Both the position numbers and the translations under genes were made by a program. From NCBI RefSeq assembly GCF_002160895.1, contig NZ_NFLL01000005.1, positions 62,001-126,000 of the forward strand: a DNA stretch of 64,000 nt. The letters run 5' to 3'. The stretch is from Faecalibacterium sp. An122 (GTDB lineage Bacteria > Bacillota > Clostridia > Oscillospirales > Ruminococcaceae). The notes below the pieces were generated by a model. The model did not search any database. It had not been told where the DNA came from and worked only from the letters and a program-made list of their open reading frames with translations. Below are positions 47,832-50,097 of the stretch, in pieces; position 1 is the first letter of the stretch, and each line of letters starts with the position of its first letter.

Positions 47832-48034
47832 GGCGTACACCTCATGTCTTCATTGTACGGAAGAATGGAGTGATTTTTTATTCCATAAACATATTGTAAT
47901 TATTACTGTAATAGTTATAATAATAAGTACAAAGGTTGTTGTTTTGCTTTGCTGCGTCCAAAATGCGCACAGCGGATCACAAAAGGCACGGCATGGGAAA
48001 GGGAGCCTGCAAATAAAAAGTCAAGCCCCCAAAT

Positions 48035-48068
48035 GAAAAAACTTTCGCCCCAAAGCGAAAGTAAAAAA
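48035..48068. terminator. Bidirectional terminator beside the IS110 gene
   Basis: ACTTTCGC / GCGAAAGT stem with A-run before and T-run on the opposite strand. It ends minus-strand transcription from the transposase. Confidence 0.75.
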
Positions 48069-48137
48069 GCGTACACCAAATCTGACCGGCGAGAAAACAA
48101 CATCGCCAGTCTGGCAGAGAGGTATTTGAAATGGAAC

Positions 48138-49367
48138 TTACTCCTGTTCGGGCGGCTCACAGCCAGCCGCTGTGAGGCATTCTTTTACCCGTGCGTAGTA
48201 AATGCGCAGGAACTTGTTCTGCGCGGCGGTCATGTATACGAAGTAGGGCTTGCCTTCGGCGCGTTTCTTGTCCAGGAACTGGTACACCGGTTCGTCGGCC
48301 GGAGACTTCTTCAGGTAGGTGCAAACCACCTGGTAGAGGATCTTACGAAGATGCGGAGAGCCTCGTTTGGTAGCCGGATTGCTCTGTGCGATGTGCTTGC
48401 CCGACTGGTTCACGGCCGGGTCAACGCCAGCGAACGCCACCAGCGAGCTGCGGTGGGCAAAGCGGCGGACGTCGCCGATCTCAGCGATCAGCTGGGCGGC
48501 GGTGACATCCCCCACGCCGTACATGGCCCGTACCGTCTCGTATTCGGGAAGCTGCTGAGCCAGGCGGATCATTTCCTGCCGCAGGGCTGCCGTTGCGGCA
48601 CGCGCATCGGTGAGCTGCCTGGCAGCCGTTGTAATCAGCATCTTGGTATTGCTGTTCCTGGGCAGCGTCGTGTAGCACTGGCGGCTGCCGGCATATACGT
48701 CAATAGCTTTATCGGGGCTGAAGTTGTAACCTTTTCGCTTGCACCACTTCCGGTAGCGCTCGGTGAACGTCTCCTGCGATATGCGGCACAGGCAGTCGCG
48801 GTGCCAGAAAGTCATGACAAAGTCCACCCATTTCTGGTGGCCGTCAGGACGCTCCGGGCTGGAGAACAGTTCGTTCACGCCGGGATATACCTTGTCGGTC
48901 AGAGAAATGAGATTGTTTTGCAGCGCCACGTTGGTTTTCATGTATAGGTCGTACTGGCGGCTGTAGAGTTTCAGTTGTTGTCGAATTGCATCCATAAGTG
49001 TATATTCCTGCAATTTGACCCAGTTGTCAAGAGCGTATTTGGCGATCTTCATTGCGTCCGCTTTGTCGGTCTTGACTTTCCGAATGGAACCGCCGCCGCT
49101 CTGCTTAATGTAGAGCGGGTTCAGCACAGATACATAAATTCCGTATTCGTGCAGTGCCGCTGCCACAGGCTCATGGTAACGGCCGGTCGCTTCCATGACA
49201 ACTCTTGTTTCCTCGCCCAGGCCAATAATGGCATTTGCCATCTGCTCCAGACCAAGTTCTGTGTGAGGAAACTCGCGGGGGGTAAGAGCCACTTCCCCCA
49301 TTGGCCGCAGGGCGGCCACCATGCTTTTACATTTGGATACATCGATCCCGACTGCGTTTATTTTCAA
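48138..49367 (-). CDS. IS110-family transposase
   Basis: 409 residues with the two IS110 domains. The N-terminal RuvC-like DEDD domain has D9 in VGIDVSK, EATGRYHEP at about 59 and the VKTDKADAMKIAKYAL aspartates at about 100. The C-terminal Transposase_20 domain has YGVGDVTAAQLIAEIGDVRRF and the serine region AVNQSGKHIAQSNPATKRGSPHLRKIL. IS110 enzymes recombine through a noncoding bridge RNA encoded at one element end. The gene appears intact and could be active. Confidence 0.95.
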   Translation of the reverse strand: MKINAVGIDVSKCKSMVAALRPMGEVALTPREFPHTELGLEQMANAIIGLGEETRVVMEATGRYHEPVAAALHEYGIYVSVLNPLYIKQSGGGSIRKVKTDKADAMKIAKYALDNWVKLQEYTLMDAIRQQLKLYSRQYDLYMKTNVALQNNLISLTDKVYPGVNELFSSPERPDGHQKWVDFVMTFWHRDCLCRISQETFTERYRKWCKRKGYNFSPDKAIDVYAGSRQCYTTLPRNSNTKMLITTAARQLTDARAATAALRQEMIRLAQQLPEYETVRAMYGVGDVTAAQLIAEIGDVRRFAHRSSLVAFAGVDPAVNQSGKHIAQSNPATKRGSPHLRKILYQVVCTYLKKSPADEPVYQFLDKKRAEGKPYFVYMTAAQNKFLRIYYARVKECLTAAGCEPPEQE

Positions 49368-49392
49368 CCTCCTGGATTTTGAATTTGGCCTT

Positions 49393-49498
49393 CCCGCCTT
49401 TTTCTCATCGCTTGTTCAATCTCCTGGGGTTGACACGAACGCGCCAAAAGCTGGCGGTACTACCTGCGCAAATCGAATACTGCGAATGAGAAAGGCGG
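49393..49498 (-). ncRNA. Candidate IS110 bridge RNA region
   Basis: Noncoding sequence upstream of the transposase forms a long-range stem (49395-49408 with 49486-49498: CGCCTTT-CTCAT against ATGAG-AAAGGCG). It encloses the hairpins CGCA/TGCG (49467-49484) and CGCCA/TGGCG (49442-49456). In characterised IS110 elements such as IS621 the bridge RNA is encoded just there, upstream of the gene and on the same strand. Guide loops cannot be named without target and donor sequences. Confidence 0.45.
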
Positions 49499-49587
49499 CT
49501 GACGGACTCCCTTGCGGGCGTGCTGGCCCTTGGTCAATCAAGTCAGGCCATTCCTCTCTCATTCTAACAGCTTCAGCTCTGAGATGG

Positions 49588-49613
49588 AAAAAGACACGGC
49601 TGGCTGCCGTGCC
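49588..49613 (-). terminator. Minus-strand terminator upstream of the IS110 element
   Basis: GGCACGGC / GCCGTGTC stem followed by five T on the minus strand. It would block outside transcription from entering the insertion sequence. Confidence 0.65.
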
Positions 49614-49647
49614 TTTCACCGTATCTTTATTGTAGGAGGTCAAACCT

Positions 49648-50097
49648 ACGGCAACTGAGCTGGCAGCGGTGTCCAGAGCAGCACCTGAAGAACGCCCCAG
49701 CCTTGTGGCGGAGATTTGCAGGCCACGGCAGGAGAAACGAACAGCCCGGGAAAAACAGGTAGCCCAAGAGAAGGCCGTTATCCAAGAAGCAGCGGCTGCT
49801 TTACCGGAGCCTCCCAAGCCAACCAGCGGGCGGCGAAGCCAAAGCAGAAAGGTTCTGGAATCCATCCAGGAAATCTCGAAAAAAATGCTCCAGGCCAGCA
49901 GCGATATCGAAGAAGCGGACGTTTTCGGCGAGATGGAGGACGCTCTGGACAGCCTGATCTTCCGCTGGAACACCTGTTTGCAGAACAACCCGGAGCTCTG
50001 CCTCTCAGGGCTGGAGGGCATCCGGCGGATTGGGGAACAGGGTATGGAATTTATTAAAAACTTTGAACAATCTATCCGTGAAGCCAACGCCGGATGA
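49648..50097 (+). CDS. Coiled-coil helper protein upstream of the recombinase, no ATG
   Basis: About 149 residues if started at ACG 49648, which lies 7 bases after AGGAGGT and gives TATELAAVSRAAPEERPSLVAE. The first normal start in frame is GTG 49669, which has no ribosome binding site of its own. The middle is charged (RQEKRTAREKQVAQEK), followed by a proline-rich hinge and helices (QEISKKMLQASSDIEEADVFGEMEDALDSL). It resembles no family that I can name. Similar small proteins often precede serine recombinases of Clostridia. ACG looks like a mutated ATG. Confidence 0.55.
   Translation, partial: TATELAAVSRAAPEERPSLVAEICRPRQEKRTAREKQVAQEKAVIQEAAAALPEPPKPTSGRRSQSRKVLESIQEISKKMLQASSDIEEADVFGEMEDALDSLIFRWNTCLQNNPELCLSGLEGIRRIGEQGMEFIKNFEQSIREANAG

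What the first reader, a model, noticed from the sequence alone, without database searches (positions are those of the whole stretch)
49368..49560. Putative bridge RNA of an IS110 element
The sequence upstream of the transposase folds into a closing stem with inner hairpins and internal loops, in the place where IS110 elements encode programmable bridge RNAs. Few have been described in Oscillospiraceae.
Basis: partly seen in the sequence, partly recalled or inferred. Interest (0 to 1): 0.6.

Follow-up and report, generated by a model that had tools for sequence, protein, structure and literature searches.

The report
Bridge RNA of an IS110 element
This stretch encodes a guide RNA of a small jumping gene (IS110 type) whose loops match both the element's own ends and its insertion site; it is a well-supported new member of a system described in 2024, found in gut clostridia.

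Summary
The finding holds. The window carries an IS110-group element on the minus strand (about 1.63 kb, cores at 49637-49638 and 48004-48005) with an intact-length DEDD/Ser recombinase reading frame (49367-48138). Its long left end encodes a bridge RNA, best bounded at about 49622-49404 rather than 49368-49560. Evidence: a 60-pair structure conserved in 45 relatives (93.7% of cells paired, 34 pairs with double changes, 0/500 shuffles); a target loop whose two guides covary with the insertion flanks (7 nt left + CT + 5 nt right; 0 of 100,000 shuffles); a donor loop whose right guide tracks the element's left end (43 of 47 exact, four variants); and a promoter with a 17-bp spacer that appears only when the ends join (22 of 25). 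In three genomes, identical copies sit at different sites sharing the motif their RNA predicts. It differs from IS621 in an outer 7-bp stem closing both loops. The window copy may be weak: relatives' ATG start is ATA here, and its two flanks come from different original sites. RNA expression and recombination were not tested. New member of a known kind.

The parts
48004..49638 (-). IS110-group element from core CT (49638-49637) to core CT (48005-48004)
   Evidence: similarity to about 40 relatives starts sharply at the left core and ends at the right core; flanks differ
48138..49367 (-). DEDD/Ser recombinase (transposase), 409 aa, TTG start; D9, E59, D101, D104, S322
   Evidence: PF01548 and PF02371 over cut-off; aligned with IS621 8wt6 D11/E60/D102/D105/S241
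49404..49622 (-). predicted bridge RNA (5' end inferred from the -10 box)
   Evidence: covariation and model R1, 227.5 bits
49591..49615 (-). 5' stem-loop P1
   Evidence: 10 pairs, all with changes on both sides in relatives
49575..49583 (-). 5' arm of outer closing stem P0 (CUCA..GCU), pairs with 49412-49404
   Evidence: 7 pairs, 95.2% of cells paired, 3 with double changes
49404..49412 (-). 3' arm of outer closing stem P0 (AGC..UGAG)
49479..49571 (-). target-binding stem-loop (stems P2, P3, P4 around the guides)
49532..49539 (-). left target guide GAUUGAC + core C
   Evidence: covaries with left flank positions -7 to -2
49507..49513 (-). right target guide AAGGGAG, pairs with CTCCCTT
   Evidence: 7/7 here; 119/126 over 18 elements, 0/100000 shuffles
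49505..49506 (-). putative target-loop handshake guide UC
   Evidence: 28 Watson-Crick and 9 wobble of 42 with the last base of the right end
49415..49477 (-). donor-binding stem-loop (stems P5, P6)
49462..49467 (-). left donor guide GCAGGU, matches right-end GCAGG before the core
   Evidence: varies together with the right end in several relatives
49421..49425 (-). right donor guide AGGAG, pairs with CTCCT at the left end
   Evidence: 43 of 47 exact over four variants
49629..49634 (-). -10 box TACAAT at the left end
   Evidence: with the -35 box gives a 17-bp spacer across the joined ends in 22 of 25 elements
48019..48024 (-). -35 box TTGACT at the right end
49639..49645 (-). left target flank GTTTGAC
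   Evidence: 6 of 7 match the guide
47999..48003 (-). right target flank CCCTT
   Evidence: 5 of 5 match the guide

Best explanation
The left end of an IS110-group insertion sequence encodes a bridge RNA. Inferred cycle, by analogy with IS621: the recombinase excises the element as a circle; joining right and left ends creates a promoter (TTGACT-17 bp-TACAAT) that transcribes about 219 nt of RNA. The RNA binds the recombinase. Its first internal loop pairs with the target (left guide GAUUGAC+C with the bottom strand; right guide AAGGGAG with the top strand CTCCCTT). Its second loop pairs with the joined ends (GCAGG before the CT core, CTCCT from the core on). The recombinase then exchanges strands at the CT core. 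Shown here by sequence comparison: the ends, the core, the structure, the guide-DNA complementarity and covariation, and the junction promoter sequence. Not shown: transcription, RNA binding, circle formation, recombination.
For: Transposase domains and catalytic residues. Sharp element ends in relatives. Target guides covary with flanks: left-guide register peak z = 7.0; right guide 119/126 identities vs 89.4 expected; left guide 164/280 vs 112.5; 0 of 100,000 shuffles each. Multi-copy elements in G081, G010 and G124: 14 sites match their own guides 5.4/7 left and 3.9/5 right against 2.4 and 2.8 for other elements' guides. Right donor guide equals the complement of the left end in 43 of 47, over four sequence variants. 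Left donor guide changes together with the right end in e.g. L004, L057, L058. Junction promoter spacing of 17 in 22 of 25. Structure covariation.
Against: No RNA data. The window copy's left guide has two mismatches to its own site (position -6, and A opposite the second core base; that base is T in about half of the relatives). The left donor guide match is short (5 nt plus a wobble). The start codon position is ATA instead of the relatives' ATG, so this copy may be poorly translated. The relatives are related by descent, so shuffle counts overstate independence, although target flanks are not inherited with the element.
Confidence: 0.94

Rival explanations
1. The structure is a leader or attenuator that only controls transposase expression in cis.
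For: It lies in the transposase leader, directly upstream of the ribosome-binding site. The 5' stem-loop is followed by a U run in the window copy, like a terminator.
Against: The loops covary with DNA outside the element and with both element ends, which a cis regulator would not need. The U run is interrupted or missing in many relatives.
Confidence: 0.03
2. The conserved repeats are only protein- or DNA-level binding sites of the transposase at the ends, with no RNA acting.
For: Older IS models rest on end repeats bound by the transposase (general knowledge; no tool result supports it here).
Against: Base-pair covariation in an RNA-like fold, including compensatory changes about 170 nt apart, and a junction promoter aimed at this segment.
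Confidence: 0.01
3. A real bridge RNA family, but this particular copy is dead or dying: degraded start codon, hybrid flanks. (Compatible with the best explanation; it concerns this copy only.)
For: ATA at the relatives' ATG. Left flank is the 3' part of a ParB-like gene whose 5' part is missing, and the right flank is unrelated. Single copy in the genome.
Against: Open reading frame of full length with all catalytic residues; both flanks still match the guides; TTG could serve as start.
Confidence: 0.4

Closest known systems
IS621 and its bridge RNA (IS110 group; PMC11208160, PMC11208158)
   Same: Left-end RNA upstream of the recombinase; CT core; 5' stem-loop, then target loop, then donor loop; left guide pairs with the bottom strand and right guide with the top; 14-nt target (7 + CT + 5); promoter reconstituted across the joined ends; DEDD + Ser catalytic residues.
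   Different: Longer RNA (about 219 vs 177 nt) with an outer stem that closes target and donor loops together. In IS621 the donor loop spans nt 110-177 of a 177-nt RNA, leaving no room for such a stem. The transposase is longer (409 aa against a 328-residue IS621 chain) with a longer stretch between the two domains; only the N- and C-terminal parts align.
seekRNA of ISEc21 (IS110 type) and IS1111 elements (PMC11187229)
   Same: RNA from the long non-coding region guides target choice; circular intermediate with a new promoter.
   Different: IS1111 elements usually carry it downstream of the gene; here it is upstream.
ISCro4 transposase (PDB 9t56)
   Same: Second-best solved relative by sequence.
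   Different: Remote sequence relation only; its RNA was not compared here.

Membership tests
IS110 group with bridge RNA | DEDD RuvC-like domain plus C-terminal Transposase_20 domain with conserved Ser | tested here: met
   PF01548 101.4 bits, PF02371 76.7 bits; residues D9/E59/D101/D104/S322 align with IS621
IS110 group with bridge RNA | Left non-coding end longer than right (IS1111 is the reverse) | tested here: met
   left end 269 nt (49636-49368), right end 132 nt (48137-48006)
IS110 group with bridge RNA | Short core (CT) at both ends | tested here: met
   CT at 49638-49637 and 48005-48004; shared by nearly all relatives
IS110 group with bridge RNA | Structured RNA with two internal loops in the left end | tested here: met
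IS110 group with bridge RNA | First loop complementary to both sides of the target | tested here: met
IS110 group with bridge RNA | Second loop complementary to the joined element ends | tested here: met
   right donor guide strong; left donor guide short but varying with the end
IS110 group with bridge RNA | Promoter reconstituted across the right-left junction | tested here: met
   sequence only: TTGACT-17-TACAAT
IS110 group with bridge RNA | RNA expressed and bound by the recombinase; guided recombination | not testable with these tools
   needs experiment
IS1111 group | Bridge RNA in the right end | tested here: not met
   the covarying RNA and the full-length model match lie in the left end
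Rfam family | Match to a curated RNA family over its gathering score | tested here: not met
   no match in the window

The most novel reading that the evidence does not exclude
A bridge RNA subclass of clostridial IS110 elements in which an outer stem clamps the target and donor loops into one closed unit, with its 3' arm close to the transposase ribosome-binding site. Folding of the guide and translation of the recombinase could thus be coupled.
Probability: 0.2. Interest if true: 0.55.

Novelty: new member of a known kind. Interest (0 to 1): 0.42.

Why it matters
It gives a decoded set of guides (both target and both donor segments), ends and core for a clostridial IS110 lineage, with dozens of relatives of varied target guides. 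That is raw material for programmable recombinases outside the IS621 branch, and a natural test of the pairing rules, including support for the handshake position in the target loop.

Tried and rejected
Single-sequence folding was only mildly better than shuffles and was not relied on. Rfam gave nothing. An alternative pairing between the 3' arm of the target stem and the segment 49409-49392 was seen by eye but dropped, because that segment is better explained by the conserved outer stem. A short leader reading frame (ATG near 49409 in the window) was considered and dropped: many relatives lack its ATG. An empty site could not be shown for the window copy: relatives hold only the left-flank gene and the right flank has no close match in the genus. 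The donor-loop handshake position (A after AGGAG) does not fit the usual C before the core, so no claim is made.

Full report
What was checked. The segment 49368-49560 lies directly upstream (minus strand) of a 409-codon reading frame, 49367-48138, with both IS110 transposase domains over their cut-offs. The only solved relatives found are the IS621 (8wt6) and ISCro4 transposases. D9, E59, D101, D104 and S322 fall on the IS621 catalytic residues (the IS621 numbering is from PMC11208158).

Ends and core. A genome collection scan returned 78 loci encoding relatives, and a search of 150 related genomes added more. DNA similarity begins abruptly at window 49638 and ends at 48004, while flanks are unrelated from locus to locus. 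The left end begins CT-CCTACAATA; the right end finishes TTGACTTTTTATTTGCAGG-CT. CT is thus the core, as in IS621. Left and right non-coding ends are 269 and 132 nt, the IS110-group (not IS1111) arrangement. Joining the ends gives TTGACT-17 bp-TACAAT. The 17-bp spacer is kept in 22 of 25 distinct elements although the last bases of the right end differ in number.

Structure. The window fold alone is only mildly unusual (z = -2.2). An alignment of 45 left ends supports eight helices: a 5' stem-loop; a target stem-loop; a donor stem-loop; and an outer stem, 49583-49575 with 49412-49404, most of whose pairs RNAalifold found unprompted. Counting pairs for the whole model: 93.7% of cells paired, 34 of 60 pairs with changes on both sides, 0/500 shuffles reaching any measure, against 37-43% paired for slid versions. 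The donor stem P5 is almost invariant and so is neither supported nor contradicted by covariation. A covariance model finds one copy in the window genome and 37 matches in 19 of 150 related genomes; most of those I compared lie directly upstream of a transposase match.

Target guides. Letting left flank and the 5' side of the target loop slide past each other, agreement peaks at one register (z = 7.0). Agreement above chance is confined to the seven bases before the core (the core C is constant). On the other side it is confined to the five bases after the core. Right guides agree at 119 of 126 positions (shuffled mean 89.4) and left guides at 164 of 280 (112.5), with 0 of 100,000 shuffles as high. 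Target flanks are not inherited with the element, so shared descent of the elements does not explain this. Identical copies at different sites within G081, G010 and G124 share a motif that their own RNA predicts and other elements' RNAs do not.

Donor guides. The five bases ending at the AG before AUUGAA are the exact complement of the first five bases of the element in 43 of 47 cases, across CTCCT, CTACT, CTATT and CTGTT. The left donor guide GCAGG matches the bases before the right core and follows several of their changes (GCAGA in L004, ACAGG in L057, GCAAG in L058), though not in every element (L053 keeps GCAGG against GCAGA). The base after the right target guide pairs with the last base of the right end in 28 of 42 elements, and by wobble in 9 more, using T-A, A-T and C-G. 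This is what the handshake position of IS621 predicts (PMC11208158).

The window copy. Its right guide matches the right flank perfectly and its left guide matches six of seven left-flank bases. Two signs of decay. Relatives start ATGAACGC; the window reads ATAAACGC, leaving a TTG immediately after AGGAGG. The left flank is the 3' part of a ParB-like gene (my reading of the protein) that is intact in relatives, whose sequence beyond the core differs from the window's right flank; the missing 5' part was not found elsewhere in the genome next to another copy, only more distant homologues. Most simply, the copy arose by recombination between, or deletion next to, two copies at different sites (inference).

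Conclusion. The feature works, by all sequence evidence, like the IS621 bridge RNA, and meets every defining feature of the IS110 group that could be tested. The outer stem is a difference from IS621; whether other IS110 bridge RNAs have it was not tested. I file it as a new member of a known kind.

Noticed in passing
47960-48003 and 49639-50097: The two flanks of the element do not come from one site: the high-coordinate flank is the 3' part of a ParB-like gene, intact in G001 and G019, whose 5' part is missing here; the other flank has no close match in the genus. Suggests a deletion or recombination at the element.
   Followed up: partly
49355-49373: Transposase start: relatives have ATG, the window copy has ATA at that position; only a TTG directly behind AGGAGG remains.
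   Followed up: partly
L158 1501-1726: A bridge-RNA-like left end in genome G030, which has no transposase match; the next frame downstream looks like a sugar kinase fragment. Probably a solo remnant, or a non-autonomous element.
   Followed up: partly
L046 2618-2960: In Oscillibacter sp. MSJ-31 the donor-loop hairpin carries an extra stretch of about 100 nt, apparently a palindromic insertion.
   Followed up: no
48036-48062: Terminator-like hairpin with T run just after the transposase gene, inside the right end, upstream of the -35 box.
   Followed up: no
49531: The left target guide has A opposite the second core base; T, A or C occur there in relatives, so this base seems not to be read.
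   Followed up: partly
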